Origin: Candidatus Tectomicrobia bacterium
GTDB lineage: Bacteria > UBA8248
Assembly (NCBI GenBank): GCA_016192135.1
Contig: JACPUR010000036.1
Span: 1 to 27,324, forward strand
Direction of reading: 5' to 3'
Length of the DNA stretch: 27,324 nt
Both the position numbers and the translations under genes were made by a program. Under the pieces are notes generated by a model. That model made no database searches. It was not told the origin of the DNA and worked only from the letters and a program-made list of their open reading frames with translations. Of this stretch, positions 6,634 through 20,866 are shown piece by piece; the stretch's first letter is position 1, and each line of letters starts with the position of its first letter.

Positions 6634-6796
6634 GGCGCCTCCCCGAAAAAAAATGCCCCCTGGGCGGTCTTAGATATAACTAATTGATATTACGTATGTT
6701 ATAGGCATATCCACCAGTCATCTTATCCTGGAATATCGTGAAATATCCTGAACATTTCTGAACGCGATGGATGAACGGACTCTCGCCTCCACATCT

Positions 6797-6824
6797 GTAG
6801 GGGCGTATTGCAATACGCCCCTAC
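6797..6824. repeat. Perfect 28-base palindrome, GTAGGGGCG family
   Basis: GTAGGGGCGTATTG is followed directly by its exact reverse complement. The outer arms (GTAGGGGCG..CGCCCCTAC) recur in other gaps of this window, while the core differs. Confidence 0.85.
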
Positions 6825-6970
6825 CTTTCCCTCCCGGCAAACCGGAGGCGGTCCCTCCGCCCCTAGAGAAGATACACCCCCCGCGCCGGAAGCCACTTAC
6901 ACCAATTTCGCGCACCTTCGCGCAAACCGCGCCGGTTTCGCGCGGGGAGAAACCCTCCGCCGGGCGGTCC

Positions 6971-7038
6971 GCAGGGGCGGACCTTGCGTCCACCCTCCGT
7001 GAATGGCAAAGGGACGAATACAAGATTCCCCCCCACGG
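6971..7038. repeat. Two degenerate copies of the GGGGCG palindrome family
   Basis: GCAGGGGCGGAC at 6971-6982 faces GTCCACCCT at 6988-6996, and GGGACGAAT at 7011-7019 faces ATTCCCCCC at 7025-7033. Both look like decayed members of the family. The trailing GACCATTC (7038-7045) also follows the copy at 15089-15113, so flanks as well as stems may be shared. Confidence 0.5.
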
Positions 7039-7080
7039 ACCATTCAGGCACCGGGATTTGGGGCGGATTGCGTAAGCTCT

Positions 7081-8424
7081 CTACACCCCCTCCCCCCACC
7101 TCGTCTCCCTCAGGTTCTCCACCAGCACCCTCCCCGCCTTCACGACATACCGCTTCTCGGGCTGGTCGATGAGGATGTCGTCGAAGTTCTCGGTGTCGAG
7201 GACGACGAAGTCGGCGTCCCGGCCGGGGGCGATGCCGTAGCGGTCCTCCACCCCGAGCACCTTGGCGGCGCTCTCCGTGAACATGGGGGGGATGAGGACG
7301 CGATCCGAGGCCCCGCTCATGTGGGCGACCGAGGCGAGGAGGAGGCCGATCTCCAGGAGGTCGCCCCGGCCGGAGGGGGTGAAGGCGTTGCGGATGTTGT
7401 TCGAGGCGATGGAGACGTTGACCCCCGCGCGGAGGAGGTCCTTGACCCGGGTGAGGCTGCGGTGGCGGGGGGGCACGGGGCCCCGCCCGCAGAGGAAAAG
7501 GTCGGTGGCGGGCAAGGGCAGGACGTGGATGCCCGCCTCGGCGATGAGCGAGACGATGCGGGCGGCCGCCCCCTCGTCCATGGCGCCGAGGGAGGTCAGG
7601 TGGCCCACGGCGACCCGGCCCTGGAGGCCCTGGGCGAGGGTGCGCCGGGCGACGGACTCGATGCGGCGGTCCCCGGGGTCGTCGGTGAAGTCGAGGTGGA
7701 GGTCGACGTCTTTCCCGAACTCCCCGGCCAGGCGGAAGACGATGTCGAGGTGGCGCTCGGGGTCGAGGTCGTTGTAGGGCACGCCCCCCACGGCGTCCCC
7801 GCCCATCCGGAGGGCCTCGCGCATGAGGTCCTCGGTGCCGGGCTGCTGCTCGATGCCCTCCTGGGGGAAGACGACGATCTGGAGGTCCACCCAGCCCCGC
7901 CAGGCCTCCCGGAGCTCGAGGGCGGCCTCCATGCCCTGGAGGCCCACGATGGGGTCCACCTCGGCCTGGGCGCGGGCGCGGGTCGCGCCGTGGCGGAGGA
8001 GGAGCTTGAGGGCGCGCCCGGAGCGCTCGTGGATGTCGCGCTTCGTGACCCGGCGCTTGAGCTCCAGGGTGATGGCGATGGCGTCCTGGAGGGTGCCGGA
8101 GAGGTTGGGGCGGCGCTCCTCGAGGAAGGCCTTGTCGAGGTGGATGTGGCTCTCGATGAAGCCGGGGAGGACGGCGCGGCCCCCCAGGTCCACCTCTTCC
8201 GGCCGGGCCGCCCGGGCGGGGCCGCGCCCGCTCCGCCCCGTCTCCGCCGGGCGGGCGGGGGCGACGGAGCAGAACTTCCCGCCCTCCACGAAAAGGTCGT
8301 GGAGCGCGCCCCCGGACGAGAGGCGGGCGTTCCGGAACACGGTTCCATCTTCGGGACGCTGGCTCACGCGGCGCCTCTCCACGCTGGGGTGCATTTCCGG
8401 AGCCGGCTCTGGGGCGACGGCCAT
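7081..8424 (-). CDS. Cytosine-deaminase-like amidohydrolase with altered active site
   Basis: The 447-residue protein has the amidohydrolase-superfamily TIM-barrel plan of CodA/AtzC enzymes. HxH metal ligands are His93 and His95 (PGFIESHIHLD). His243 (DLHLDF) and His275 (VAVGHLTS) fit the third and fourth histidines. A C-terminal beta-sandwich strand (GRDADFVVLDTENF) closes the composite domain. Two usual acids are absent. CodA's catalytic Glu (HCDE) aligns with Phe246 (HLDF), and its metal-binding Asp (GHDD) aligns with Asn342 (SNN). The SNNIRNAFTP pattern suggests a distinct subfamily, so deaminase activity should not be assumed. The ATG at 8424 follows an AAGG about 8 bases upstream. The gene is divergent from the Liv transporter operon across 220 bases, suggesting linked substrate use. 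Confidence 0.82.
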   Translation of the reverse strand: MAVAPEPAPEMHPSVERRRVSQRPEDGTVFRNARLSSGGALHDLFVEGGKFCSVAPARPAETGRSGRGPARAARPEEVDLGGRAVLPGFIESHIHLDKAFLEERRPNLSGTLQDAIAITLELKRRVTKRDIHERSGRALKLLLRHGATRARAQAEVDPIVGLQGMEAALELREAWRGWVDLQIVVFPQEGIEQQPGTEDLMREALRMGGDAVGGVPYNDLDPERHLDIVFRLAGEFGKDVDLHLDFTDDPGDRRIESVARRTLAQGLQGRVAVGHLTSLGAMDEGAAARIVSLIAEAGIHVLPLPATDLFLCGRGPVPPRHRSLTRVKDLLRAGVNVSIASNNIRNAFTPSGRGDLLEIGLLLASVAHMSGASDRVLIPPMFTESAAKVLGVEDRYGIAPGRDADFVVLDTENFDDILIDQPEKRYVVKAGRVLVENLRETRWGEGV

Positions 8425-8644
8425 CCATACCCTTCCGGGCGCGCGGGGGCAAGGGGCCGGGGGGAACGTCCAACTTCACCTTGACCCGCCCAGGGAAACA
8501 TGGGAGAAATGCCCCATTGGTTGCAGGTCTTTCGGCCCGCAGGAAAATGCGCTTTCTGGACATCGTGACGGGGCTGTTTCCAACGCGGCGGGAGAGCGTT
8601 TTTGTTTTTGGGCTCTGGCACGGGCGCCGTTCCTTGAGGGCTGA

Positions 8645-9526
8645 ATGAACGTATTCCACCTGCGGAACTTCGTCGAGCTCTGCTACAACAGCCTCTCCTA
8701 CGCGGCGCTTCTCTTCCTGCTGGCGAGCGGCCTCTCGATCATCTTCGGCGTCATGCGCATCGTGAACCTGGCGCACGCCGCCTTCTTCCTGCTGGGCGGC
8801 TACATCGCCCTCTCGGTGTACCGGGTGCTGGGGACGGCGCTGTGGACCCTCCCGGTGGCGATGGTGGTGGGGGGCGGGGTCGTGGCGGCGCTGGCGATGT
8901 TCATCGAGCGCTACTTCCTGCGCCGCCTGGGGCAGGACACCCTGGCCCAGGTGCTCGTCACCGTGGGCTTCGCCTTCATCCTGTTCGACACGAACATCCT
9001 CATCTGGACGGGGGACAACTACATGCTCCACCGCCCGTGGCCGCTGGACGACAGCACGGTCATCGGCGGCATCTCCTTCCCCCGCTACCGCGCCTTCATG
9101 ATCCTCTCGGCCGTGATGGTGTGGGCGATCCTCTACTTCGCGATCGAGCGGACCCGGGCCGGGGCCATCGTGCGGGCCACGGTGGACGACCCCCAGATGG
9201 CCCGGGGCGTGGGCATCAACACCAACATCGTGCAAATGAGCATCTACGGCCTAGGGGTGTTCCTCTCGGCCATGGGGGGCGTGGTAGGGGGCGCCTTCCT
9301 CGGCGTCTCGCCCGGCATCGACTTCCAGGTGCTCCCCTACGCTTTCGCGGTGGTCATCATCGGGGGCCTCGGGAGCCTGACCGGAGCGGTGGTGGGGAGC
9401 CTGGTGGTGGGCTTCGTCGAGAATTTCGGCACCGCGCTCTTCCCCGAGCTTTCCTACTTCGCCCTGTTCGCCCCGATGGCCGTCATCCTGGCCATCAAGC
9501 CGACGGGCCTCTTCGGGAGAGGCTGA
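8645..9526 (+). CDS. livH: Branched-chain amino acid-type ABC transporter permease (LivH-like)
   Basis: The 293-residue protein has about eight membrane spans and the LivH pattern: LLASGLSIIFGVMRIVNLAHAAFFLLGGY near the N terminus, ERTRAGAIVRATVDDPQMARGVGIN in the EAA-like cytoplasmic loop, and PYAFAVVIIGGLGSLTGAVVGSLVVG near the C terminus. It should form the membrane channel with the next gene product, powered by the two ATPases downstream. It is the first gene of the operon. The second permease starts only 2 bases after its stop, implying coupled translation. Family members carry branched-chain amino acids, urea, amides or aromatic acids, so the substrate is open. Confidence 0.93.
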   Translation: MNVFHLRNFVELCYNSLSYAALLFLLASGLSIIFGVMRIVNLAHAAFFLLGGYIALSVYRVLGTALWTLPVAMVVGGGVVAALAMFIERYFLRRLGQDTLAQVLVTVGFAFILFDTNILIWTGDNYMLHRPWPLDDSTVIGGISFPRYRAFMILSAVMVWAILYFAIERTRAGAIVRATVDDPQMARGVGINTNIVQMSIYGLGVFLSAMGGVVGGAFLGVSPGIDFQVLPYAFAVVIIGGLGSLTGAVVGSLVVGFVENFGTALFPELSYFALFAPMAVILAIKPTGLFGRG

Positions 9527-9528
9527 CC

Positions 9529-10545
9529 GTGGGCTCCAGCTCCTTCATCGAACGCCGGCGGATGAAGTACGCGCTCGTCGTGCTGGCGGCCGTCGCGGTC
9601 GTCACTCCGTTCCTGGACGACTACTACCAGACCATCGTCACGCGCTCGTTCATCTTCGCCATCATGGCAATCAGCCTGGACATCCTGATGGGCTACACCG
9701 GCCTCTCCTCGCTGGGCCACGGGGCCTATTTCGCCTTCGGCGCCTACTCGGCCGCCATCCTCGCCACGAAGGTGCCGGGGGTGAGCATCTTCGTCCTGTT
9801 CGCGGCGGCGCTGGGCCTCTCGTGCCTGCTCGCCGCCTTCCTGGGGCTCCTGGCCATCCGGGCGGTGGGGGTGTACTTCCTGATGATCACCCTGTCGTTC
9901 GCGATGGTGGTCTGGGGCCTCGTGTACCGCTGGCACACGGTGACGGGGGGCGACAACGGCATCGCGGTCCTGAACATCCCGACTTTCCTGGGGATGCCCA
10001 TCGGGGAATCGACGCCCTTCTTCTTCTTCACCTTCGGCGTGTTCCTGTGCGTCCTGAGCGTCCTCTACATCCTCGTGCAGAGCCCCTTCGGGAAGAGCTT
10101 GATCGGCATCCGGGAGCGCGAGGCGCGGATGAAGATGCTGGGCTACAACACCTGGCTCCACAAGTACCTGGCGTTCGTCATCTCGGGCACCTTCGCCGGC
10201 ATTTCGGGAATGCTCTGGACGCTCCAGAACCGCTTCGTCGGCCCGACCGACGTCGAGCTGGTGACCTCGGTGGAGGCCCTGCTGATGGTGGCCCTGGGCG
10301 GGCCCTCCACCCTCGTGGGACCTATTTTCGGCGCCTTCATCATCACCTTCCTGCGCTACTGGGTGAGCCTCTACGTCGAGCGGTGGTACATCATCCTGGG
10401 CGCGACCTATATCGTGACCGTCCTTTATGCCCGGGAAGGCGTCCTGGGCAAGTTCGAAGCCATCATGGCCCGGAGAAGGTCCCGGGCAAACAGCGAGCCG
10501 GCCCTCCCGCAGAGCCAGAAGCAGACAACGGAGTCACATACTTGA
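9529..10545 (+). CDS. livM: Branched-chain amino acid-type ABC transporter permease (LivM-like)
   Basis: The 338-residue partner permease carries the LivM signature LMGYTGLSSLGHGAYFAFGAY and the loop SPFGKSLIGIREREARMKMLGYN, where the coupling helix contacts the ATPases. It ends with MVALGGPSTLVGPIFGAF. I use the GTG at 9529 because GGGAGAGG lies just upstream and the gene abuts livH. An in-frame ATG at 9562 is an alternative. The last 30 or so residues are a hydrophilic Arg/Gln/Ser tail beyond the final helix. The gene is followed by an 85-base gap before the first binding protein. Confidence 0.93.
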   Translation: MGSSSFIERRRMKYALVVLAAVAVVTPFLDDYYQTIVTRSFIFAIMAISLDILMGYTGLSSLGHGAYFAFGAYSAAILATKVPGVSIFVLFAAALGLSCLLAAFLGLLAIRAVGVYFLMITLSFAMVVWGLVYRWHTVTGGDNGIAVLNIPTFLGMPIGESTPFFFFTFGVFLCVLSVLYILVQSPFGKSLIGIREREARMKMLGYNTWLHKYLAFVISGTFAGISGMLWTLQNRFVGPTDVELVTSVEALLMVALGGPSTLVGPIFGAFIITFLRYWVSLYVERWYIILGATYIVTVLYAREGVLGKFEAIMARRRSRANSEPALPQSQKQTTESHT

Positions 10546-10630
10546 CGGCTCCGGCTTCAGGCTCACGTCCGCTCCCGGCGCAACCCCTCCGGGGCAGGCG
10601 CGGGGAGCATTCCGCAGGGGAGGAAGCACC

Positions 10631-11890
10631 ATGAAAGCGAAATGCACCGCCGTAGTCGCAGTGGCTTGCCTTGCCTTCGCGGCCGGGGCGGCCCAGGGAG
10701 CCCAGAAGGAGGTGCGGATTGGCTTCCTCGCGCCCATGACGGGCCCCAACGCCCAGATCGGCAAGGACATGAGCAACGGCTTCATGATGTATCTCGAACA
10801 GATCAAGTACCAGATGGGGCCGCTCAAGGTGAAGTTCATCCTCGAGGACAAGGAGAGCAAGCCCCCCCTGGCCGTGGCCAAGGCCCAGAAGCTCATCCAG
10901 CGCGACAAGGTGCACATGTTCCTGGGCGGCCTGCTGGCGCCCACGGGCTACGCCCTGGCGCCCGTGGCCGACCGCTTCAAGGTGCCCTACATCTCCCCCG
11001 CTCCCGCGGGCGAGGACCAGACCCAGCGCCAGCGCGCCAAGTACTACGCCCGCCTCTCCTTCGCGAGCGGCCAGTGCCAGCACGCCCTGGGCGACTGGGC
11101 CTACGAGAACGGCATGCGCCGCGTCGCCACCGTGGCCGCCGACTACGCCTTCGGCTACGAGTCGGTCGGGGGCTTCCAGCGGACATTCGAGGAGAAGGGC
11201 GGCAAGGTCGTCGCGAAAATCTGGCCCAAGCTCTTCTCGGTGGACTACGGCCCCTATCTGCCCCTCATCCCCCGGGACGCGGACGCCGTCTACACCCTGA
11301 TGGTGGGGCCCATGTCCCTGGCCTTCCCCAAGCAGTTCAAGGCGGCCGGCTTCAAGATGGCCCTCCTCGGCGGCACGACGAGCGCCGACGAGTTCATCCT
11401 CCCCAACATGGGGGACGAGGCCATCGGCTACGTCACGGCCTCCCACTACAGCGCGGCCCTGGACACCCCCAGGAACCATGCGTTCGTGAAGGAGTTCCAG
11501 CAGCGCTACGGGAAGATGGCCTCCTACTACACCGAGAACTCCTACACCGCGGCGCAGGCGATCCACGAGGCGCTCAAGATGATCAATTACGCGCCCGAGA
11601 AGACAGACGCATTCCTCGCCGCGCTCAAAACCATCCGCATGAACGCCGTCCGCGGCCCGATCTACCTCGATCAACACGCCAATCCCGTGCAGAACTGCTA
11701 CATCCGCAAGGTCGAGCGCGCCGCCGGCGACCGCAACAGCCTGGGCGTGAAGGCCAATTCCCTTTGGAACATCGTGATAAAGACGTACCCGGCGGTGAGC
11801 CAGTTCTGGACCTACAAGCCGGAGGAGTTCCTGAAGAACCCGGTGTACGACAAGAACTTCCCGCCCTGCAAGTTCTGCGGGACGAACTAA
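10631..11890 (+). CDS. ABC transporter substrate-binding protein, Leu/Ile/Val-type (first of tandem pair)
   Basis: The 419-residue protein starts with a Sec signal peptide (MKAKCTAVVAVACLAFAAG, likely cut after AQG) and then the periplasmic binding fold of type I (KEVRIGFLAPMTGPNAQIGK). The segment LGGLLAPTGYALAPVADRFKV is a typical ligand-side region. It delivers substrate to the adjacent permeases. It is strikingly alike to the next gene product in length and, by eye, in about four residues of five. The C terminus has a CxxC (Cys413 and Cys416 in PPCKFCG), and a Cys in SGQCQHALG is shared too, so disulfides are possible. GGGGAGGAAG precedes the ATG. Specificity is not readable. Confidence 0.92.
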   Translation: MKAKCTAVVAVACLAFAAGAAQGAQKEVRIGFLAPMTGPNAQIGKDMSNGFMMYLEQIKYQMGPLKVKFILEDKESKPPLAVAKAQKLIQRDKVHMFLGGLLAPTGYALAPVADRFKVPYISPAPAGEDQTQRQRAKYYARLSFASGQCQHALGDWAYENGMRRVATVAADYAFGYESVGGFQRTFEEKGGKVVAKIWPKLFSVDYGPYLPLIPRDADAVYTLMVGPMSLAFPKQFKAAGFKMALLGGTTSADEFILPNMGDEAIGYVTASHYSAALDTPRNHAFVKEFQQRYGKMASYYTENSYTAAQAIHEALKMINYAPEKTDAFLAALKTIRMNAVRGPIYLDQHANPVQNCYIRKVERAAGDRNSLGVKANSLWNIVIKTYPAVSQFWTYKPEEFLKNPVYDKNFPPCKFCGTN

Positions 11891-11905
11891 GGCCCGCTTC
11901 GTGGG

Positions 11906-11933
11906 CCCGGCGGCGATCGGCCCCGCCGCCGGG
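11906..11933 (+). terminator. Strong GC hairpin after first binding-protein gene
   Basis: CCCGGCGGCG at 11906-11915 pairs perfectly with CGCCGCCGGG at 11924-11933 over an 8-base loop, 15 bases past the stop. There is no T-run, so it may be an mRNA-stabilising or attenuating hairpin rather than a full terminator. Confidence 0.55.
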
Positions 11934-11997
11934 GGTCCGATTTGGGATGTGACTTCGCCGCACATGGGCCGCATTCATGGGAGCGTCCGGGCGGCCG

Positions 11998-12027
11998 TTT
12001 TCACCGCCATCCTCGATAAGGTATCAT
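11998..12027 (+). promoter_or_regulatory. Candidate sigma-70 promoter for the second binding-protein gene
   Basis: TTTTCA at 11998-12003 and TATCAT at 12022-12027 are 18 bases apart, in the 216-base gap before the second binding-protein gene. The gap is long for an operon interior and follows a strong hairpin, which favours a separate start. Match is moderate. Confidence 0.35.
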
Positions 12028-12106
12028 GGCCCCACACGGCGAAAACTGCTGGTAGGGCCTGCATGAGCATCCCAAAGTTCCCCTGTCCATGAAGGGAGGG
12101 ATCACG

Positions 12107-13366
12107 ATGAAAGTCAGATGGATAGCGGCGCTGGTGGCCGGCGCCTTCGCGCTCGCCCTGGCGGGCGCAGCGCAGGCGGCGGCGAAGGAAGTGCGCATCG
12201 GCTTCATCGCGCCGATGACCGGCCCCTTCGCGCAGGTCGGCAAGGACATGACGAACGGCTTCCTGATGTACCTGGAGCAGAACAAGAACAAGATGGGCCC
12301 GCTGACCGTCAAGTTCACCATCGAGGACTACGAGGCCAAGCCCCCCGTCGCCGTGGCCAAGGCCCAGAAGCTCATCCAGCGCGACAAGGTGCACGTCTTC
12401 CTGGGCGGCCTGCTGGCCCCCACGGGCTACGCCCTGGCGCCCGTGGCCGACCGCTTCAAGGTCCCCTACCTCTCCCCGGCTCCCGCGGGCGACGACCAGA
12501 CCCAGCGCGTGCGGGCCAAGTACTACGCCCGCATCTCCTTCACGAGCAGCATGTGCCAGCACCCCCTGGGCGACTGGGCCTATGAGCAGGGCATGCGCCG
12601 CATCGTCACCGTGGGCGCCGACTACGCCTTCGGCTACGAGACGGTGGGCGGCTTCCAGGCCGGGTTCGAGGACAAGGGCGGCAAGATCGTCGCCAAGGTG
12701 TGGCCCAAGCTGGGCACCGTGGACTTCGGCCCCTACCTGCCCCAGATCCCGCGCAACGTGGACGCCGTCTACACCCTGATGGTGGGGCCGATGTCCCTGG
12801 CCTTCCCGAAGCAGTTCAAGGCGGCCGGGTTCACCATGCCCTTGCTCGGCGGCACGACCAGCGCGGACGAGTTCATCCTCCCCAGCATGGGCGACGAGGC
12901 CATCGGCTACATCACGGCCTCGCACTACAGCGCCGCCATCGACACCCCCAAGAACCACGCCTTCGTGAAGGAGTTCCAGAAGCGCTACGGGAAGATGGCC
13001 TCCTACTACTCCGAGGCCGCCTACACCAGCGCCCTCTACATCCACGAGGCCCTCAAGCGCACCGGCTACAATCCCGACAAGACCGAGGTCTGGCTCAACG
13101 AGCTGAAGAAGATCCGCCTGGACGCCGTCCGCGGCCCGATGTATCTCGACCAGTACGCCAACCCCGTGCAGAACTGCTACATCCGCAAGATCGAGCGTCA
13201 GCCGGGCGATTACAAGAACCTGGGCGTGAAGCCCAACTCGCTGTGGAACATCGTCATCAAGACCTACCCGGCCGTGAGCCAGTTCTGGAAGTGGACGCCG
13301 GGGGAATTCCTGAAGCATCCCGTGTACAACAAGGATTACCCGCCCTGCAAGAACTGCGGGCAGTAG
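12107..13366 (+). CDS. ABC transporter substrate-binding protein, Leu/Ile/Val-type (second of tandem pair)
   Basis: Exactly 419 residues, like its upstream neighbour, with a clearer Sec signal peptide (ending near AAQA) and mature start KEVRIGFIAPMTGPFAQVGK. Most of the domain is the same as in the first copy, and nucleotide identity is visible over long runs, for example in the region encoding AKAQKLIQRDKVH. The C terminus keeps the CxxC (Cys414 and Cys417 in PPCKNCG). Differences cluster in small patches such as KYQ/KNK and SSM/SGQ, some possibly near the ligand cleft. This is most simply a tandem duplication with divergence, giving two receptors for one permease. A GAAGGGAGGG lies just before the ATG at 12107; an in-frame ATG at 12089 lacks this. 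Confidence 0.92.
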   Translation: MKVRWIAALVAGAFALALAGAAQAAAKEVRIGFIAPMTGPFAQVGKDMTNGFLMYLEQNKNKMGPLTVKFTIEDYEAKPPVAVAKAQKLIQRDKVHVFLGGLLAPTGYALAPVADRFKVPYLSPAPAGDDQTQRVRAKYYARISFTSSMCQHPLGDWAYEQGMRRIVTVGADYAFGYETVGGFQAGFEDKGGKIVAKVWPKLGTVDFGPYLPQIPRNVDAVYTLMVGPMSLAFPKQFKAAGFTMPLLGGTTSADEFILPSMGDEAIGYITASHYSAAIDTPKNHAFVKEFQKRYGKMASYYSEAAYTSALYIHEALKRTGYNPDKTEVWLNELKKIRLDAVRGPMYLDQYANPVQNCYIRKIERQPGDYKNLGVKPNSLWNIVIKTYPAVSQFWKWTPGEFLKHPVYNKDYPPCKNCGQ

Positions 13367-13375
13367 CCTTTTTGC

Positions 13376-13413
13376 GGAGCCGCCGCCCGGAGGGGCCTCC
13401 GGGCGGCGGCTCC
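13376..13413 (+). terminator. 18-bp perfect hairpin between binding protein and ATPase genes
   Basis: The 18 bases at 13376-13393 are the exact reverse complement of 13396-13413, leaving only two bases between. The stem is nearly all G/C. No T-run follows, and genes continue 24 bases later, so it probably limits read-through or protects the upstream message. That would keep binding protein in excess over ATPase, as seen in many transport operons. Confidence 0.65.
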
Positions 13414-13436
13414 GGCTCAACCGAAGGGAACGGGAT

Positions 13437-14192
13437 TTGGCGACCGGCGAGCAGCCCCGCCTGGAGCTCCGGGGGGTTTCCAAGCACTTCGGCGGCCTCC
13501 ACGCCGTCGAAGACGTGAACCTGCGCCTCACCCGCGGGGGCCGGCACGGCATCCTGGGGCCGAACGGGGCGGGCAAGACCACCCTTTTCAACCTCATCAC
13601 CGGCGTCCTGCCCCTCACTTCGGGGAGCATCTCCCTGTTCGGGCAGGACGTCTCCCGGGAGCCCACCCACAAGCGGACGGCCCTGGGGATGGCGCGGACC
13701 TTCCAGATCACCAGCCTCTTCCCGAAGATGACGGTGCTCGACAACGTCCTGCTCGCGGTGCAGGGCCTGCGCCCCATGAAGCTGATGATGCTCAAGCCCC
13801 TCACCTCCTACGGGAACGTGTACGACAAGGCCGAGAAGCTGCTGACCGACGTGAACTTCTGGCACCTGCGCGACACCCAGGTGCGCAACCTCTCCCACGG
13901 CGAGCAGCGCCAGCTCGAAGTGGTGCTGGGGCTGGCCAGCGACCCGACGGTCCTCCTGCTGGACGAGCCCTCCGCCGGCCTCGCCACGGGCGAGTCGCGC
14001 GAGATGGCGCAGTTCCTCAACTCGCTCGACAAGGACCTCTCCATCCTCATCATCGAGCACGACCTGGACGTCCTCTTCGGCGTCGTCTCGCGCATCACGG
14101 TGCTGCACTACGGCAAGGTGCTCCTCGAGGGCCCGAGCGACCAGGTCCGGAACGATTCGCAGGTCAAAGAGATCTACTTGGGGAAGGGCTGA
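13437..14192 (+). CDS. livG: ABC transporter ATPase (LivG-like)
   Basis: The 251-residue ATPase has Walker A GPNGAGKTT at 41-49, the ABC signature LSHGEQRQLE near 152-161, Walker B LLLDEPSAGL near 173-182 and the switch His208 (IIEHDLDVLF). The insert after the Q-loop and the phrase ARTFQITSLFPKMTVLDNVLLAVQG are typical of LivG. The signature is LSHGE rather than LSGGE, a common variant in this branch. The start is a TTG at 13437 with AAGGGAA upstream. The next ATPase begins three bases after the stop. It would energise the permease pair. Confidence 0.92.
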   Translation: MATGEQPRLELRGVSKHFGGLHAVEDVNLRLTRGGRHGILGPNGAGKTTLFNLITGVLPLTSGSISLFGQDVSREPTHKRTALGMARTFQITSLFPKMTVLDNVLLAVQGLRPMKLMMLKPLTSYGNVYDKAEKLLTDVNFWHLRDTQVRNLSHGEQRQLEVVLGLASDPTVLLLDEPSAGLATGESREMAQFLNSLDKDLSILIIEHDLDVLFGVVSRITVLHYGKVLLEGPSDQVRNDSQVKEIYLGKG

Positions 14193-14195
14193 GAG

Positions 14196-14906
14196 GTGGC
14201 CGCGCTCCTGTCCGTCGAGGACATCCACACCTACTACGGCGACTCCTACATCCTCCAGGGGCTCTCCCTCGAGGTGCGCGAGGGGGAGGCGCTCGGCGTC
14301 CTCGGCCGCAACGGGATGGGGAAGACCACCCTCATCAACTCCATCATGGGCTTCGTCCAGCCCCGGCGGGGGCGGATCGTCTTCCAGGGCAAGGACATCA
14401 CCCGCACCCCGAGCTTCGAGACCTGCAACATGGGCATCGGGCTCTGCCCCCAGGGGCGGCGCGTGTTCCCCACCCTCACCGTGCGCGAGAACCTGCTGGT
14501 GGCCCACCAGGCCCGCAACGGCAAGAGCCGCTGGGACCTCAGCGCCGTCTACGAGCTCTTCCCCCGGCTGGGGGAGCGCCACGCCCAGCGCGCGGGCTCC
14601 CTCTCCGGCGGGGAGCAGCAGATGCTCGCCGTCGCCCGGGCGCTCGTGACCAATCCCGCCTGCCTCATCCTGGACGAGCCCTCCGAGGGCCTCGCCCCCC
14701 TCATCATCCAGCACATGGGCGAGGCCATCCGGAAGCTCCGCGAGGAGGGCCTGGCCATCCTCCTCGTCGAGCAGAACACCCCCTTCGCCCTCAAGGTGGT
14801 GGACCGGGTGAACATCGTCACGAAGGGGAGGGTGGTCCACGACCTCTCGCCCGAGGCGCTTTGGGCGAACGAGGAGATCAAGCACACCCACCTGGGGATC
14901 GGATAG
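14196..14906 (+). CDS. livF: ABC transporter ATPase (LivF-like)
   Basis: The 236-residue protein shows Walker A GRNGMGKTT at 37-45, LSGGEQQML at 136-144 and LILDEPSEGLAP at 157-168. The switch-His position reads LLVEQN, as usual in LivF proteins, where the His is replaced. Opening words SVEDIHTYYGDSYILQGLSLEV are typical. The start is GTG at 14196, 3 bases after the livG stop, with a GGGAAGGG upstream. It is the last gene of the operon and is followed by an intrinsic terminator. Confidence 0.92.
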   Translation: MAALLSVEDIHTYYGDSYILQGLSLEVREGEALGVLGRNGMGKTTLINSIMGFVQPRRGRIVFQGKDITRTPSFETCNMGIGLCPQGRRVFPTLTVRENLLVAHQARNGKSRWDLSAVYELFPRLGERHAQRAGSLSGGEQQMLAVARALVTNPACLILDEPSEGLAPLIIQHMGEAIRKLREEGLAILLVEQNTPFALKVVDRVNIVTKGRVVHDLSPEALWANEEIKHTHLGIG

Positions 14907-14941
14907 GCGGGCCTTCATCGCGGCATCAAGGCGAACCGGCC

Positions 14942-14972
14942 GCCCTCCCCGCCAAGGGAGGGCAGTTTTTTT
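14942..14972 (+). terminator. Intrinsic terminator of the Liv operon
   Basis: GCCCTCCC at 14942-14949 pairs with GGGAGGGC at 14956-14963 over a 6-base loop. A run of seven T follows at 14966-14972. This is the clearest rho-independent terminator in the window and lies 36 bases past the last ATPase gene. Confidence 0.85.
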
Positions 14973-14992
14973 CATTTCGCGCCGAGTCATTC

Positions 14993-15053
14993 TGTAGGGG
15001 CGATGCTTGTCATCGCCCCATGCAAAAGGGGCGAACACGAGGTTCGCCCCTAC
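14993..15053. repeat. Two adjoining GGGGCG-family palindromes
   Basis: GGGGCGATG at 14997-15005 pairs with CATCGCCCC at 15011-15019. GGGGCGAAC at 15028-15036 pairs with GTTCGCCCC at 15042-15050. The outer GTAG and CTAC ends are partly kept. Confidence 0.8.
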
Positions 15054-15071
15054 AAACCAATGCGGGCAGGC

Positions 15072-15113
15072 CCCTGTGCTTACCCACAGGGCGAACACGA
15101 GGTTCGCCCCTAC
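15072..15113. repeat. GGGCG palindrome with competing upstream hairpin
   Basis: A copy of the GAACACGAGGTTCGCCCC unit spans 15089-15113, repeating the core at 15031-15050 exactly. Upstream CCCTGTG (15072-15078) pairs with CACAGGG (15085-15091), so two stems compete for the same bases. Confidence 0.7.
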
Positions 15114-15141
15114 AGACCATTCGCCCAGGTTTTCCTGATCC

Positions 15142-15169
15142 GTAGGGGCGCACGGCCGTGCGCCCCTAC
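15142..15169. repeat. Perfect 28-base palindrome, GTAGGGGCG family
   Basis: GTAGGGGCGCACGG is followed directly by its exact reverse complement. It has the same length and outer arms as the copy at 6797-6824 but a different core. Confidence 0.85.
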
Positions 15170-15209
15170 ATATTTTGGGCGCTCACCCGCCTGGCGGTTC
15201 CCCGGAGGC

Positions 15210-17516
15210 CTACCCCTTCCCATCTTTCCCCTTTTTCACGAGCGCCAGGGCCACCCGGTCGGGGGCGAGGGGGAGGCGCCTGAAGCGCACCCCGGTCGCG
15301 TCGTAGACCGCGTTGGCGATGGCCGCCGCCGTCGGCACCGTCACCTGCTCCCCCGCCCCCTTGGCGCCGTAGGGGCCGTTCGAGTAGGGATCCTCGACGA
15401 TGATGGCCTCGACCCGGGGCATGTCCGCCACGGTGGGGGCCAGGTAGCCGTGCATGTCGGGGTTGAGCATGCGGCCCCCGCGCTGGACGATCTCCTCCAT
15501 GAGGCAGAAGCCCACCCCCATGTAGACGCCCCCGTCGATCTGCTGCCGCACGCCGAGGGGGCTGATGGCCCGGCCCACGTCGTGGGCCGCCCAGACCCCG
15601 GTCACCTCGATCTCCCCCGTCTCGGGGTCCACCAGCACCTCGGCGACCTGGGTGCCGAAGCCATAGACTTCGTAGGGATCGCCCAGGCCGGTGTCGTGGT
15701 CGGTCTTGGCGGCGGGGGGGATGCTGTCCGCCGCGCCCAGGAGCTTGTGCTTGTCCGCCACGAAGGCCTTGGCGATCTCGGCGAGGGTGAGGCGGGTTTC
15801 GGCGTGGGAGCGCGAGCGCACGGCGCCCCCCTTGAGCTCCAGGTCCTCCGGGTCGGCCTCGAGCAGGAGGCCGGCCAGGCGCAGCACCTCCTGGCGGGCA
15901 CGGAGCGCCGCCTGGAAGACGGCCTTCCCGCCCTGCATGGTGATGCGCGAGCTCGAGCTCGTGCCGCCGAAGGGATCGACCGCGGTGTCCACCGCCCCCA
16001 TGAGGAAGCTCCCGAAGGGCACGTCCATCGTCTCGGCCGCGATCTGGCAGAGCACGGTCTTGCTCCCCTGGCCGAAGTCCACCACCCCGGCCGCCACCCG
16101 GACCCGCCCGTCCGCCGTGAGGAAGATGTGGGCCTCGGCGGGGGAGTAGGCGTTCCCCGTGCCGTAGAGGCAGCTCGCCACCCCCATCCCGCGCAGCCTC
16201 CCGTCGGGGGCGCGGCGGGCGCCGTTCCCGCGCCTCGCGCGCCAGCCCGAGGCCTCCTCCGCCTTGGCGAGGGTCTCCATGAGGCCGACGCTCTCGGAGA
16301 GGCGCTGGTTCCACGGGGTGCGCGAGCCGATCTTGAGCCCGTTGATGCGGCGCAGCTCGATGGGGTCGATCCCCAGCGCGCGGGCCAGCTCGTCCAGCTG
16401 CTGCTCCCCGGCGAAGTGCACCTGGGGGCAGCCCGGGCCGCGCATCTGGCCCCCGTAGGGATGGTTGGTGTGGACGCAGTAGACGTCCACCTTCACGTTG
16501 GGGATCTGGTAGGGCCCGAGGGCGTGGTAGGTGGCCCGCTTGAAGGCGGGGGGGTTGTCCCCGCCGTTCGCGGCGTAGGCCCCCTTGTCGAGGTAGACCT
16601 CCACCTCGGCGGCCACGATGCGGCCGTCGCGCGTCGCCCCCGTGCGCGAGCGGATGAAGGCGGCGTGGCGCTTGGAGGAGGCGATCATGCTCTCCTCCCG
16701 TGAGTAGACGAGCCGGACGGGCCGCTGGGCCGCCCGCGCCAGAAGCGCCGCCCGCAGGCACACGTCCAGGCTGGCCTCGCTCTTGCCGCCGAAGGCCCCG
16801 CCCGGGATGGTCTGGATGAAGCGCACCGAGGCCTCGCCCTTCAAGCCCAGGGCCCGGGCGACGTTCTGGCGCACGAGGAAGGGCTGCTGGGTGCTGCCCC
16901 AGACGGTACAGCCGCCCCCGGGAAGGGGGGCCACCGCCGCCGACTCCACCTCGATGTAGAGGTGCTCGATCGAGGGGGTCTGGTACTCGTTCTCCACGAT
17001 CACGTCGGCGAGCCGGAAGCCCTCCTCGACGTCCCCGTTCCGGATCTTGGCGTGGTTGAGGAGGTTGCCCTCCGGCCAGAGCTTGGGCGCCCTGGGGCCC
17101 ATCGCCGCGCGCGGATCCTCGGCCACCGGGAGGGGTTCGTACGCCACCCGGATGAGGCCCAGCGCCGCCTCGGCCGCCTCGGCCGTCTCGGCGGCCACGA
17201 GGGCCACCACGTCCCCCATGTAGCGCACCCGCTCGCGGGCGATGAGGGGGGCGCCCCGGCGGTGGCCGATCATCCTGATTTCATTGGGAAAATCGGCCCC
17301 CGTGAGGACCGCCGCCACGCCCAGCGCCCGGCGGGCCGCCGAGGCGTCGACCGAGAGGAGGCGGGCGTGGGCGCTGCGGAGCGCCCGCCCCGTCAGCATC
17401 CCCGGCAGGCGCAGGTCGTCGAGGTAGGTCGCCGTCCCGGCGGCCTTCTCCGGGGCGTCCAGGAAGGGGAGCGTCTGGCCGATGGTCGCTCCTCCCATAT
17501 CCTTGGCTTCGGCCAT
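15210..17516 (-). CDS. Xanthine dehydrogenase family molybdopterin-binding subunit
   Basis: The 768-residue protein is a full-length large subunit of the molybdenum hydroxylase family. The N-terminal a/b hammerhead domain runs to about residue 130 (DAPEKAAGTATYLDDLRLPGML). The Moco-binding part has QQPFLVRQNVARALGL, GGAFGGK at 239-245, MRGPGCPQVHFAGEQQLD, and GAKGAGE, whose Glu723 is the catalytic base. Such enzymes hydroxylate purines, N-heterocycles, aldehydes or nicotinate-like rings; CO dehydrogenase's active-site loop is not evident. FAD and 2Fe-2S subunits, normally separate genes beside it, are absent on both sides here, so partners must lie elsewhere. TGGAGGAC lies about 6 bases upstream of the ATG. 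It faces the Liv operon tail and is divergent from the signalling operon. Substrate is unknown. Confidence 0.92.
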   Translation of the reverse strand: MAEAKDMGGATIGQTLPFLDAPEKAAGTATYLDDLRLPGMLTGRALRSAHARLLSVDASAARRALGVAAVLTGADFPNEIRMIGHRRGAPLIARERVRYMGDVVALVAAETAEAAEAALGLIRVAYEPLPVAEDPRAAMGPRAPKLWPEGNLLNHAKIRNGDVEEGFRLADVIVENEYQTPSIEHLYIEVESAAVAPLPGGGCTVWGSTQQPFLVRQNVARALGLKGEASVRFIQTIPGGAFGGKSEASLDVCLRAALLARAAQRPVRLVYSREESMIASSKRHAAFIRSRTGATRDGRIVAAEVEVYLDKGAYAANGGDNPPAFKRATYHALGPYQIPNVKVDVYCVHTNHPYGGQMRGPGCPQVHFAGEQQLDELARALGIDPIELRRINGLKIGSRTPWNQRLSESVGLMETLAKAEEASGWRARRGNGARRAPDGRLRGMGVASCLYGTGNAYSPAEAHIFLTADGRVRVAAGVVDFGQGSKTVLCQIAAETMDVPFGSFLMGAVDTAVDPFGGTSSSSRITMQGGKAVFQAALRARQEVLRLAGLLLEADPEDLELKGGAVRSRSHAETRLTLAEIAKAFVADKHKLLGAADSIPPAAKTDHDTGLGDPYEVYGFGTQVAEVLVDPETGEIEVTGVWAAHDVGRAISPLGVRQQIDGGVYMGVGFCLMEEIVQRGGRMLNPDMHGYLAPTVADMPRVEAIIVEDPYSNGPYGAKGAGEQVTVPTAAAIANAVYDATGVRFRRLPLAPDRVALALVKKGKDGKG

Positions 17517-17682
17517 GGTGTCCTCCAGGCTGCGGGAGCGGCTGATGAACGGGTCCTCAATCTACCGCCCGCCCCCGGGCTTGTCCACGAGGCGTTTTGG
17601 AGGCGGTTCCGCGTCCGGCCGATAGGGCATGGGCGAAGGGGGAGATGCCTTCCCGCGGAGACAGGCGGCGGGGGTCCTGTGC

Positions 17683-17688
17683 TATAAA
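17683..17688 (+). promoter_or_regulatory. Candidate -10 element upstream of the signalling operon
   Basis: TATAAA in GCTATAAATG stands out in a GC-rich divergent gap and lies about 50 bases before the first start. No good -35 box is found at the right spacing, so an activator or another sigma factor may be needed. Confidence 0.35.
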
Positions 17689-17738
17689 TGACGGCGCATG
17701 CGAGCGGATGGGCACGTCCGGACGAAGGGGCGGCGTCG

Positions 17739-18074
17739 ATGGGCGTCATCAACCTGGAGAACATCGAGGCCGGCATGGTCCTCGCCGCCGACGCCAAGGC
17801 GCGCAACGGCCGGGTGCTCCTGCCCGCCGGGAACGCCCTCACCGGAAAACACCTTCAGATTTTCAAGGCCTGGGGCGTGACCGAGGCCGACATCGAGGGG
17901 GTGACGCGCCAGGACGTGGCCGCCGCCGCCGCCGCCGAGTCGCAGGTGGAGCCCCGGCTCCTCGAGCGGGCCCAGGCCATCCTCCAGGAGCGCTTCCGCC
18001 ACGTGGAGGACGGCCACCCCTTCGCGGAGGAGCTCCGCCGGCTCTGCCTTCTCCGGACCGTGAAGAAGCTCTAG
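17739..18074 (+). CDS. Small protein resembling the N-terminal domain of HD-GYP/HDOD regulators
   Basis: The 111-residue product contains NLENIEAGMVLAADAKARNGRVLLPAGNALTGKHLQIFKAWGV. This GMVLA..nG..LLPAG..LT..HL..wGV pattern usually precedes HD-GYP or HDOD domains in one polypeptide. Here it is free-standing and the HDOD domain is coded by the next gene, starting 12 bases downstream, as though a fusion had been split. An Ala-rich stretch and a short helical C terminus follow. The ATG at 17739 has GAAGGGG upstream. An earlier in-frame ATG at 17688 overlaps the promoter-like TATAAA and is less likely. A role in signalling is inferred from position. Confidence 0.7.
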   Translation: MGVINLENIEAGMVLAADAKARNGRVLLPAGNALTGKHLQIFKAWGVTEADIEGVTRQDVAAAAAAESQVEPRLLERAQAILQERFRHVEDGHPFAEELRRLCLLRTVKKL

Positions 18075-18085
18075 GAGACGGGGAA

Positions 18086-18943
18086 TTGGCCATCCTCAAC
18101 CTGCGGCAGCTCCTCGGCCCCGACGATTCGGTCCCCTCCCTCCCCACGGTCTTCCACCAGCTGGATGTGGCGGTGAACAACCCGCGCAGCTCCATGCGCC
18201 AGGTCGCCGAGATCATCAGCGCGGACCAGGCACTCTCCGCGCGGCTCCTCAAGCTGGTCAACAGCGCCTTCTTCGGCTTCCCCTCCCGCATCGAGACCAT
18301 CACCCACGCCGTGACCATCGTGGGCATGCAGCAGCTCCGCGACCTGGCGCTGGCCACCTCCATCGTGCAGATGTTCAAGGGGATCCCGATCGCGCTCCTC
18401 AACCCCAAGTCCTTCTGGATGCACAGCATCGCCTCCGGCACGGCGGCCCGCATCCTGGCCTCCTACCACCAGGAGCCCAACGTGGAGCGCTTCTTCGTCG
18501 CGGGACTCCTGCACGACATCGGCCACCTCGTCCTCTACCGGCACCAGGCCGACCTGGCCAAGGAGACCCTCCTCCGGAGCATCGAGGCGGGCCGGGTGCT
18601 CTACCAGGTGGAGCGCGAGATGATGGGGACGGACCACGCCGAGGTGGGGGGCGAGCTACTCTCCTTCTGGAAGCTGCCGCCGAGCCTGGCGGAGGCGGTG
18701 CGGTTCCATCACCTTCCCTGCGGGTCCGGCCGGTATCCGCTCGAGGCCAGCATCGTCCATTTGAGCGACGTCATCGCCAACGCCCTCCAGTTGGGCACGA
18801 GCGGGGAGCGCCACGTGCCCCCCCTGGAGCCCCGGGCGTGGGACGGGCTCAAGCTCCCGGTCAGCATCCTCTCCCCGGCCGTCAGCCAGCTCGAGCAGCA
18901 GGTGGCGGGCGCCCTGGCGCTCTTCCTCGAGGACGCGCGATGA
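18086..18943 (+). CDS. HDOD domain signalling protein
   Basis: The 285-residue protein has the HDOD pattern: SVPSLPTVFHQLDVAVNNPRSS, then IISADQALSARLLKLVNSAFFGFPSRIETITHAVTIVGMQQLRDLALA, and GLLHDIGHLVLYR. The His143-Asp144 pair remains, unlike many HDOD proteins that lose it, but other HD-hydrolase ligands are not clear. HDOD proteins are linked to two-component and cyclic-di-GMP signalling, often without enzyme activity. I chose the TTG at 18086 because GGAG lies 8 bases upstream and the preceding frame overlaps the upstream gene. Its stop overlaps the kinase start (ATGA), so translation is likely coupled. Confidence 0.87.
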   Translation: MAILNLRQLLGPDDSVPSLPTVFHQLDVAVNNPRSSMRQVAEIISADQALSARLLKLVNSAFFGFPSRIETITHAVTIVGMQQLRDLALATSIVQMFKGIPIALLNPKSFWMHSIASGTAARILASYHQEPNVERFFVAGLLHDIGHLVLYRHQADLAKETLLRSIEAGRVLYQVEREMMGTDHAEVGGELLSFWKLPPSLAEAVRFHHLPCGSGRYPLEASIVHLSDVIANALQLGTSGERHVPPLEPRAWDGLKLPVSILSPAVSQLEQQVAGALALFLEDAR

Positions 18944-20679
18944 CGCCCGACGCCGACGCCCGCATCCGGGAGCTGGAGGCCCGGCTCGAGTACCTCGAGG
19001 AGGTGAACCGCTGGACCCTCGGGACGCTCAACATGGTGTCCACGATCAACGACTTCCAGGCCGTCCTGAGCGGCGGCCGGGGAATGGAGCATATCCTCGC
19101 GGAGACCAAGCTCCGCCTGAAGCGGCTGGTGCCCTTCGAGGGGATGGCCTTCTTTTCGGTGCGCGAGGATGATCAGAGCTTCGTCCTGGCGGACTGCGAG
19201 CCGGAGGAGGCGCGCGGCCCGCTCCAGGCGGAGGCGGACCGCCTGATCGAGGAGGGCACCTTCGCCTGGTCTCTCTTCCAGTTCCGGTCGGTCCTGGTCC
19301 CCGCGGGGGACGGCCGCGGCCGCCTGCTCCTCCACGTCGTCTCCACGCGCTCGCGCACGCGCGGCATGTTCATGGGCGCGCTCCCCTCCCCCGACTCGAA
19401 CATCTACGACGCCACGCTCAACCTCGTCTCCATCGTCCTGCTCAACTGCGCCTATGCGCTCGAGAGTTGCGATCTCTACCGGGCGCTCCACGACACCCAC
19501 CGCTCCCTGGAGCAGACCGTCCAGGAGCGCACGCGCGAGCTCCAGGTGGCCCGGGACCGCGCCGAGGAGGCGAACCGCGCCAAGAGCGAGTTCCTCTCGA
19601 ACATGAACCACGAGCTGCGCTCCCCGCTGAACGCCATCATCGGCTTCAGCGACGTGGTGCTGCTCAACTCCAAGGACCCCGAAACCGTCAGCCTGGTGGG
19701 GAAGGTGAAGGATGCGGGCAAGTACCTCGCCCGCCTCATCGAGGACCTGCTCGACCTCGACCGCATCGAGGTGGGCGGCGTGCGGCTGGACCTCCAGGAG
19801 GTCCAGATCAACCGCCTCGTGGCCTCGACGGTGGAGACCCAGCTCTCCCAGCTTCCCAAGGGCTTCTCCCTGGAGTGCACGCTGGACCCCGCCTGCGGCG
19901 CGGCGGTGTGCGACCCGACGCGCATCCGCCAGGTGCTCCAGAACCTGCTCGACAACGCGGTCAAGTACTCGCCCGAGGGCGGCACGGTGCGCATCCGCAC
20001 CTGGGTCGAGGCGGGGGAGGTGCGGGTGAGCGTGCAGGACGAGGGGATGGGCATCGCTCCCGAGCACCAGAAGGTCATCTTCGAGCGCTTCCGCCAGCTC
20101 GAGTCCGGCCACCGGCGGCGGGCGGGGGGCCTCGGCATCGGCCTGAGCCTCGCCCAGCGCCTCCTCGCCCTGCACGGCGGGCGCATCTGGGTGGAGAGCC
20201 GGGTCGGCGGAGGAAGCGTCTTCACCTTCGCGCTGCCCATCCTGCGCGCCGCCGCCGAGGGGGCCGGCCTTCCCGCACCCTTCCCGGCCGGCCCGGGGGA
20301 GATGGACGAGCCCTGGGCCGGGCGCAGCGTGCTCATCGTGGACGATGTGGAGGACTACCATAAGCTCATGCGCCTCCTGATGCGGCAGGCGGGCCGCATC
20401 CTCTCGGCCTTCGACGGCCAGGAGGCGATCGAGCTGGCCCGGCGGGAGCGGCCCGACCTCATCCTCATGGACCTGCGCATGCCGGTGCTGGACGGCTTCG
20501 AGGCCATCGGCCGCCTCAAGGCCGACACTGCGACACAGGGGATCCCCATCCTCGGGGTGAGCGCCCAGGTCATCAAGGAAGACCGGGACCGGTGCCTGGC
20601 GGCGGGGGCGGAGGGCTACATCACGAAGCCCCTCGACCTCGACGCCCTGCGCCTCGAGATCGAGCGGGTGATGGCGTAG
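18940..20679 (+). CDS. Hybrid sensor histidine kinase with C-terminal receiver
   Basis: The 579-residue protein has a short coiled coil (about 6-26), a GAF-like sensory region (about 27-180), and another coiled coil with EANRAKSEFLSNMNHELRSP. His224 is the phospho-acceptor of the H box. The ATPase domain has the N box (DNAVKYSPEGG from Asp338), DEGMGI, FERF and GGLGIGLSL. The receiver at about 463-579 has Asp468-Asp469, phospho-acceptor Asp511 (LILMDLRMP) and Lys563 (YITKP), all intact. There is no membrane span, so it should sense a cytosolic signal. It starts at the ATG overlapping the HDOD stop. The longer frame to 18838 has no ribosome site. It is the third gene of the operon and no DNA-binding output partner is seen here. 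Confidence 0.92.
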   Translation: MTPDADARIRELEARLEYLEEVNRWTLGTLNMVSTINDFQAVLSGGRGMEHILAETKLRLKRLVPFEGMAFFSVREDDQSFVLADCEPEEARGPLQAEADRLIEEGTFAWSLFQFRSVLVPAGDGRGRLLLHVVSTRSRTRGMFMGALPSPDSNIYDATLNLVSIVLLNCAYALESCDLYRALHDTHRSLEQTVQERTRELQVARDRAEEANRAKSEFLSNMNHELRSPLNAIIGFSDVVLLNSKDPETVSLVGKVKDAGKYLARLIEDLLDLDRIEVGGVRLDLQEVQINRLVASTVETQLSQLPKGFSLECTLDPACGAAVCDPTRIRQVLQNLLDNAVKYSPEGGTVRIRTWVEAGEVRVSVQDEGMGIAPEHQKVIFERFRQLESGHRRRAGGLGIGLSLAQRLLALHGGRIWVESRVGGGSVFTFALPILRAAAEGAGLPAPFPAGPGEMDEPWAGRSVLIVDDVEDYHKLMRLLMRQAGRILSAFDGQEAIELARRERPDLILMDLRMPVLDGFEAIGRLKADTATQGIPILGVSAQVIKEDRDRCLAAGAEGYITKPLDLDALRLEIERVMA

Positions 20680-20720
20680 GCGGGAAAACATCGGGCGCTG
20701 GCCGCCGCGGGGGCATTGCG

Positions 20721-20752
20721 CCGCAGGGGCGTATGGCAATACGCCCCTGCGG
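20721..20752. repeat. GCAGGGGCG-variant palindrome
   Basis: CCGCAGGGGCGTAT at 20721-20734 pairs perfectly with ATACGCCCCTGCGG at 20739-20752 over 4 bases. The arm has GCAG in place of GTAG, with the matching change on the other side. Confidence 0.85.
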
Positions 20753-20770
20753 AGTCTCTGCATGTTTTGT

Positions 20771-20802
20771 CCGCAGGGGCGACCGGCCGATCGCCCCTGC
20801 GG
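20771..20802. repeat. GCAGGGGCG-variant palindrome
   Basis: CCGCAGGGGCGA at 20771-20782 pairs with TCGCCCCTGCGG at 20791-20802. The same 12-base outer arm as the copy 50 bases upstream is used with a different core. Confidence 0.85.
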
Positions 20803-20837
20803 AGCCCCCGCCCGGTTCCGTAATCCCACGCATGAAT

Positions 20838-20866
20838 GGGGGCGAACACCAGGTTCGCCCCTACGG
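20838..20866. repeat. GGGGCGAAC palindrome copy
   Basis: GGGGCGAAC at 20839-20847 pairs with GTTCGCCCC at 20853-20861, with CTAC at the end. Core differs by one base from the copies at 15028-15050 and 15089-15113. Confidence 0.8.

What the first reader, a model, noticed from the sequence alone, without database searches (positions are those of the whole stretch)
6797..20866. Palindrome family with fixed arms and co-varying cores in three intergenic gaps
At least eight units share GTAGGGGCG or GCAGGGGCG arms, yet their inner bases change while staying self-complementary (TATTG/CAATA, CACGG/CCGTG, ATG/CAT, AAC/GTT, TAT/ATA). Outer GTAG to GCAG changes are matched on the opposite arm too. Paired change implies selection on folding, or copying by an enzyme that recognises hairpin ends, as REP-associated transposases do. 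All copies lie in gaps; none interrupts a gene. Palindromes of this look are known as dispersed repeats in several GC-rich bacteria, but their mobiliser is usually unassigned.
Basis: partly seen in the sequence, partly recalled or inferred. Interest (0 to 1): 0.65.

Follow-up and report, generated by a model that had tools for sequence, protein, structure and literature searches.

The report
Mobile hairpin repeats and their transposases
The eight palindromes are short mobile DNA hairpins (REP elements) of several families, each family apparently copied by its own small transposase whose gene carries the same hairpin inside it; a short helix of that enzyme appears to decide which hairpin it recognises, which can be tested directly.

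Summary
Eight GTAG/GCAG-GGGCG hairpins lie in three gaps of the window. The genome has 147 strict two-ended copies against 0 for a reversed-pattern control. Cores differ because they are separate families, not mainly by compensatory mutation. The mobiliser can be assigned. The genome encodes RAYT (TnpA-REP) genes and remnants that Pfam's threshold misses. Each intact one carries its own family's REP in frame, just after the HUH motif. Two families in the window match two of these genes. This anatomy is already described (TnpA-REP subclass 2.4, Quentin 2018), so it is a new member of a known kind. What I did not find in the papers I could search: a 15-residue helix after the in-gene REP predicts which REP a RAYT carries (24/31 hold-out genes; 97 backbone columns 6/31; chance 6%), while the rest of the protein hardly does. 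In one pair of congeneric RAYTs the REP and helix differ as a block inside otherwise ~90% identical DNA. That suggests a specificity cassette. Activity was not tested.

The parts
6797..6824 (.). double-foot REP, core TATTGCAATA, perfect 28-bp palindrome
   Evidence: same core in G001/G002 and inside RAYTs of Nitrospirae and Zixibacteria loci L153, L141 (L134 near-identical)
6971..6995 (+). probable decayed single-foot REP (GCAGGGGCGGAC-CTTGC-GTCCACCC)
   Evidence: resembles GTAGGGGCGGACCTGTGTGTCCGCCC of same-family RAYT loci L083/L086; inference
14994..15018 (+). single-foot REP, stem-loop ATG-CTTGT-CAT
   Evidence: family of the own C35 RAYT by stem/loop type
15029..15053 (-). single-foot REP, AAC-CTCGT-GTT; faces 14994 in inverted orientation (GTAG ends outward)
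15064..15085 (+). probable decayed single-foot REP (GGGCAGGCCCCTGTGCTTACCC)
   Evidence: resembles GGGCAGGCCCCCGTGCCTGCCC of the own C6 RAYT remnant; inference
15089..15113 (-). single-foot REP, AAC-CTCGT-GTT
15142..15169 (.). double-foot REP, core CACGGCCGTG; identical to the REP inside and beside the own C15 RAYT
20723..20750 (.). double-foot REP with GCAG feet, core TATGGCAATA (imperfect)
20773..20800 (.). double-foot REP with GCAG feet, core ACCGGCCGAT (imperfect ACCGGCCGGT)
   Evidence: the own C30 RAYT remnant has the helix type (AGFK) that goes with CGGCCG-centred cores, inference
20840..20864 (-). single-foot REP, AAC-CTGGT-GTT

Best explanation
The units are REP elements: non-autonomous hairpins that fold as single-stranded DNA and are recognised and copied by HUH/tyrosine transposases (RAYT = TnpA-REP) encoded in the same genome. 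Each family (each core) goes with its own RAYT. Each RAYT gene is laid out as REP - N-half with HUH - REP in frame - specificity helix and tyrosine half - REP. Shown here: the repeats, their families, the RAYT genes and remnants, the in-frame copies, the match of in-gene to flanking REPs, gain or loss of units between congeners, and the statistical link between one helix and the REP. Inferred: that the enzymes cleave and transpose these REPs as E. coli TnpA-REP does in vitro, and that the helix reads the stem.
For: 147 copies vs control 0. Own genome has RAYT-like matches on C1, C35, C15, C6 and C30, the last two remnants; the three fullest hit NCBIfam NF047646 'REP-associated tyrosine transposase' (best E 3.4e-19, below its equivalog cut-off). 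The only PDB sequence hit of the profile is 4er8, TnpA-REP; the AlphaFold model of a relative aligns to 4er8 with Z 12.7 over 126 residues. In-gene palindrome in 73/89 RAYTs vs 2 and 3 of 89 in neighbouring coding stretches and 2.7% in shuffles; in-gene and flanking REP agree (>=16/20 nt) in 42/53 vs 4% when loci are permuted. The base before GTAG is C or T in 89%, with TC(C/T) preferred. Units avoid genes (14 vs 119.6 expected) and prefer convergent gaps (32/77 vs 16% of intergenic bases). Gaps 1 and 3 lack the units in congener G001, gap 3 also in G002, and gap 2 of G001 holds a different REP, ACCGGCCGGT.
Against: No activity data. No RAYT was found in this 96.8%-complete assembly for the GTTCGCGAAC, AGGCATGCCT or TATTGCAATA families; those may be orphans whose transposase was lost, acts in trans, or lies in missing sequence. 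RAYT scores against PF01797 (16-19 bits) are below Pfam's cut-off of 23.
Confidence: 0.92

Rival explanations
1. The hairpins are transcription terminators or mRNA-stability elements kept by selection on RNA folding, and the paired core changes are compensatory mutations.
For: Enriched in convergent gaps, i.e. at gene 3' ends; cores stay self-complementary.
Against: Cores are a few exact families rather than scattered compensated variants; the same exact 28-mers occur in unrelated families of the domain; orthologous gaps lack them; the families match RAYT genes. No Rfam match in the window.
Confidence: 0.05
2. The units are MITE-like elements moved by an unrelated DDE transposase.
For: Short, palindromic, dispersed, non-coding.
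Against: GTAG feet, copies inside and beside RAYT genes and the pyrimidine before GTAG are the RAYT signature. Target duplications were not measured.
Confidence: 0.02
3. Within the RAYT reading: the in-gene copy is a tolerated passenger in a disordered loop, and the helix-REP link only reflects enzyme-substrate co-evolution, without exchange of a cassette.
For: The loop is disordered in the model, lowest confidence at residues 96-101; Quentin 2018 (PMC6006769) sees the region as a peripheral extension; 16 of 89 RAYTs have no detectable in-gene REP.
Against: One congeneric pair differs as a block (REP plus helix, 47-73% identity in 243790-243940) between flanks of mostly 83-97%; the backbone tree carries almost no signal of REP class (30 changes vs 32.4 shuffled).
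Confidence: 0.5

Closest known systems
TnpA-REP (RAYT) subclass 2.4 with double-foot and canonical long REPs (Quentin et al. 2018, PMC6006769)
   Same: GT[AG]G...C[TC]AC double-foot REPs and single-foot REPs with three G-C pairs at the stem foot; REPs flanking the gene; REPs inserted in frame between HUH and Y motifs.
   Different: Several such RAYT/REP pairs, intact or as remnants, in one genome of a family not named by the tools; the helix-REP link and the block difference between congeners were not found in that paper's main text.
GTAG REP superfamily (Di Nocera et al. 2013, PMC3733652)
   Same: 20-40 bp palindromes, GTAG or GYAG end, extragenic, convergent-gap bias, dimers with GTAG outward, many copies.
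   Different: The string GTAGGGGC does not occur in the paper's main text (figures not readable); half of the units here have GTAG or GCAG at both ends.
E. coli REP and TnpA-REP (4er8; Corneloup et al. 2021, PMC8266576)
   Same: HUH/tyrosine fold; GTAG foot; a helix (alpha-3) contacts the hairpin; cleavage at CT before GTAG, compatible with the TC(C/T) flank here.
   Different: E. coli REP has a bulged stem; these are perfect or simple-loop stems; an in-gene REP is described as unique to subclass 2.4, not the E. coli subclass 2.2 (PMC6006769).
Rickettsia palindromic elements (own knowledge; CGTC REPs in PMC3733652)
   Same: Palindromic repeats that can sit in frame inside protein genes.
   Different: CGTC tag, no dedicated transposase, scattered in many genes rather than in the transposase.

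Membership tests
GTAG REP superfamily (PMC3733652) | 20-40 bp palindrome with GTAG at one end | tested here: met
GTAG REP superfamily (PMC3733652) | high copy number, mainly extragenic | tested here: met
   147 strict two-ended copies in the genome; 143 units in 0.82 Mb, 14 in coding vs 119.6 expected
GTAG REP superfamily (PMC3733652) | association with RAYT genes | tested here: met
TnpA-REP subclass 2.4 (PMC6006769) | double-foot REP and long REP with three G-C pairs at the stem foot | tested here: met
   GTAG-GGGCG...CGCCC-CTAC and GTAG-GGGCG...CGCCC
TnpA-REP subclass 2.4 (PMC6006769) | REP inserted in frame in tnpA between HUH and Y motifs | tested here: met
   own RAYTs on C1, C35, C15 and the C6 remnant; 73/89 RAYTs
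TnpA-REP subclass 2.4 (PMC6006769) | placement in the published subclass tree or HMM | not tested
   the subclass models are not in the tools
REP-associated tyrosine transposase NF047646 | score above curated cut-off of 80 bits | tested here: not met
   69, 59 and 55 bits, E 3e-19 to 6e-15; two of the three matches are split into two stretches around the in-gene REP, so I call these RAYT relatives, not NF047646 equivalogs
Pfam Y1_Tnp PF01797 | score above cut-off of 23 bits | tested here: not met
   16-19 bits; fold match of a relative to IS608, ISDra2 and 4er8 structures is clear
TnpA-REP | cleavage of single-stranded REP 5' of GTAG | not testable with these tools
   only the flank preference TC(C/T) was seen
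MITE of DDE elements | target-site duplication and terminal inverted repeats of a resident DDE element | not tested
   considered only; GTAG feet and the RAYT link make it unlikely

The most novel reading that the evidence does not exclude
RAYTs of this kind read the REP stem with one short helix (about FK-5 to FK+9, just after the in-gene REP), and they change REP family by replacing a cassette of roughly 150 bp that holds the in-gene REP and this helix, while the catalytic backbone stays. The in-gene REP would then be the marker, and perhaps the junction, of an exchangeable specificity module.
Probability: 0.3. Interest if true: 0.75.

Novelty: new member of a known kind. Interest (0 to 1): 0.55.

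Why it matters
REP repeats are very widespread, but how each transposase picks its own hairpin is known in detail for only a few enzymes. Here the repeat families of one genome are tied to RAYT genes, and natural variation across many phyla points to one helix as the likely reader of the stem. If right, REP specificity could be predicted from sequence and switched in the laboratory by exchanging some 15 residues, and orphan REP families could be matched to lost transposases. It also explains an annotation artefact seen here: spurious peptides such as VGAGFKPAPT, GEHKVRPY and RRGGSRTAPT are translated REPs.

Tried and rejected
PF01797 search of the own genome found nothing; this was a sensitivity failure, mended by a profile from same-family RAYTs. 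A literature search for the string GTAGGGGCG returned papers that looked unrelated. My first crude gene finder called antisense ORFs and its coding numbers were discarded (replaced). The idea that the whole C-terminal half swaps as a module was rejected: N- and C-half trees carry similar REP signal, 16 and 17 changes. Independent-pair sign tests on the backbone tree had too few supported pairs to reach significance; none of the pairs shown went the other way. Y1_Tnp genes of genome G057 sampled at 16 loci were mostly not flanked by GTAGGGGCG palindromes. No phage record matched gap 2; the palindrome pattern occurs in at least 120 stretches of IMG/VR contigs, which may include host or provirus DNA; not followed.

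Full report
What is in the window. Eight hairpin units lie in the three gaps 6634-7080, 14907-15209 and 20680-20893 (gene calls). Four are two-ended ('double-foot'): GTAG or GCAG-GGGCG-core-CGCCC-CTAC or CTGC, with cores TATTGCAATA, CACGGCCGTG, TATGGCAATA and ACCGGCCGAT. Four are single-foot: GTAG-GGGCG-stem-loop-CGCCC with loops CTTGT, CTCGT or CTGGT. Two further decayed units are likely at 6971-6995 and 15064-15085.

How common. The strict two-ended pattern occurs 147 times in this 3.92-Mb genome and never in the reversed control; 29 and 94 times in two congeners; 1 to 29 times in sister genus g5; and 0 times in genera g2 to g4 of the same family. Over 386 genomes, 65 have it. A 0.82-Mb sample of the own genome holds 143 units. 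The commonest two-ended cores are GTTCGCGAAC, AGGCATGCCT, TATTGCAATA, CACGGCCGTG, ACCGGCCGGT and GGTTTCAAACC; the commonest single-foot ones are AACCTCGTGTT, GGCCCCCGTGCC, GCCCCCCGTGGC, GGCCCCTGTGCC and ATGCTTGTCAT. Neighbouring units are often 23-28 nt apart. The bases before GTAG are preferentially TC(C/T). Only 14 of 143 units fall in predicted genes (119.6 expected), and 32 of 77 intergenic clean units lie between convergent genes, where 16% of intergenic bases lie.

Turnover. In congener G001, gap 1 and gap 3 lack the units, and in G002 gap 3 lacks them; gap 2 of G001 carries a different REP, ACCGGCCGGT. Flanking DNA is about 81-94% identical, so this is consistent with gain or loss over that distance, not proof of current mobility.

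The mobiliser. Pfam's Y1_Tnp model finds nothing in this genus, but weak hits in sister genus g5 turned out to be RAYT genes flanked by GTAG palindromes, with a palindrome in frame inside the gene. A profile of these four (A1) finds RAYTs in the own genome: open frames C1:243373-244077, C35:141926-143053, C15:38588-39103, a truncated one at C6:12116-12508, and a C-terminal remnant at C30:126956-127216. In C15 the in-gene REP is GTAGGGGCGCACGGCCGTGCGCCCCTAC, identical to the window unit 15142-15169. In C35 the in-gene REPs are AATCTCGTATT and AACCTTGTGTT, the type of window units 15029, 15089 and 20840. In C1 it is of the GGTTTCAAACC class. The stop codon of the C1 gene is the TAG of the next REP's GTAG; 13 of 89 RAYTs do this. 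For TATTGCAATA no own RAYT was found; RAYTs carrying it occur in Nitrospirae and Zixibacteria loci. The C30 remnant has the helix type seen with CGGCCG-centred cores, so it may be the lost partner of the ACCGGCCGGT family (inference).

How general. A scan of named genomes returned 80 RAYT loci from many phyla. Of 89 RAYTs with both motifs, 73 carry a palindrome between HUH and WQR, against 2 and 3 in neighbouring coding stretches and 2.7% in shuffles. Where a flanking palindrome exists, it matches the in-gene one in 42 of 53 cases, against 4% when loci are permuted. The AlphaFold model of one RAYT (L170) shows this stretch as poorly ordered (residues about 90-118), followed by a helix (119-138); the fold matches 4er8, TnpA-REP bound to a REP hairpin (Z 12.7, rmsd 2.7, 126 residues).

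What is known. Quentin et al. 2018 (PMC6006769) describe exactly this anatomy for TnpA-REP subclass 2.4: double-foot REPs, long REPs with three G-C pairs at the foot, and REPs inserted in frame between HUH and Y. They also state that each tnpA-REP has its own REP family. The finding is therefore a new member of a known kind. Published HMM or tree placement was not tested.

What I did not find described. In sliding windows over the RAYT alignment (in-gene loop removed), the helix after the loop assigns REP class by nearest neighbour in 94-98% of 48 genes, with pairs over 62% identity excluded. Chance is 13%, and most other windows give 0-20%; a second stretch before HUH gives 54-65%. The window was found on this set, so I tested it on 50 RAYTs from further loci. 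Nearest neighbour by FK-5..FK+9 has the same REP (>=16/20 nt) in 24 of 31 testable cases; 97 backbone columns give 6/31, the second stretch 10/31, other windows 1-3/31, and chance is 6%. Excluding pairs over 60% backbone identity it is 22/28 against 2/28. Mutual information peaks between residue FK-2 and base 4 after GGG. On a tree of the remaining columns REP class changes 30 times, about as often as when shuffled (32.4, minimum 26), though that tree is weakly supported. The own C1 RAYT and a congener's RAYT (G002 C127) are mostly 83-97% identical in DNA from 243520 to 243790 (one 63% step at 243670) and 83-90% from 243940 to 244030, but 47-73% in between, where the in-gene REP and helix lie. 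In PMC8266576 the E. coli alpha-3 helix contacts the hairpin (K82), and the helix here appears to correspond to it by order of elements; residue-level equivalence was not established.

Reading. The enzyme-substrate link is strong. That families switch by exchange of a cassette bounded by the in-gene REP rests on one clear pair and on backbone decoupling, so I give it about 0.3. The literature library is incomplete, so absence of a report is not proof of novelty.

Limits. E. coli-type activity is assumed by homology. The sample is 0.82 of 3.92 Mb. Gene calls are from a simple hexamer finder of mine. REP classes were assigned by central bases, partly by hand-made rules; the hold-out used sequence similarity instead to avoid this.

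Noticed in passing
window 6767-7075, 15003-16703, 20592-20996: REPs create spurious ORFs or extensions with peptides such as VGAYCNTPLP, GEHEVRPY and GGEHQVRPY; such translated-REP peptides can contaminate gene predictions.
   Followed up: partly
L175, L158, L166: Some RAYTs carry tandem in-frame repeats around the in-gene REP (e.g. four VGTGRD units in L175), as if the copy had expanded.
   Followed up: no
G000 C1:244074, C15:5969, C2:48031, C30:45980, C1:220564: Several predicted genes, including the C1 RAYT, end inside a REP's GTAG foot, so the REP seems to supply the stop codon.
   Followed up: partly
window 13375-13414: A perfect 19-nt inverted repeat (CGGAGCCGCCGCCCGGAGG) with a 2-nt loop between the genes ending at 13366 and starting at 13437; terminator-like or another repeat.
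   Followed up: no
window 5180-5370: The gap holds another element with an inverted repeat (GGAGCATCCAAGCG/CGCTTGGATGCTCC) and peptides like HPLSQGERG, perhaps a different dispersed repeat.
   Followed up: no
window 10661-13366: Two adjacent similar ABC substrate-binding protein genes (branched-chain amino acid type by appearance), probably a tandem duplication.
   Followed up: no
   Followed up: partly
Viral contigs, e.g. L381, L397: At least 120 IMG/VR stretches contain the two-ended palindrome, some several times; possible carriage by phages or provirus flanks.
   Followed up: no
G002:C26:10562-10589: Hybrid core CACGG/CCGGT, half of one family and half of another, suggesting recombination or template switching between REP families.
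   Followed up: no
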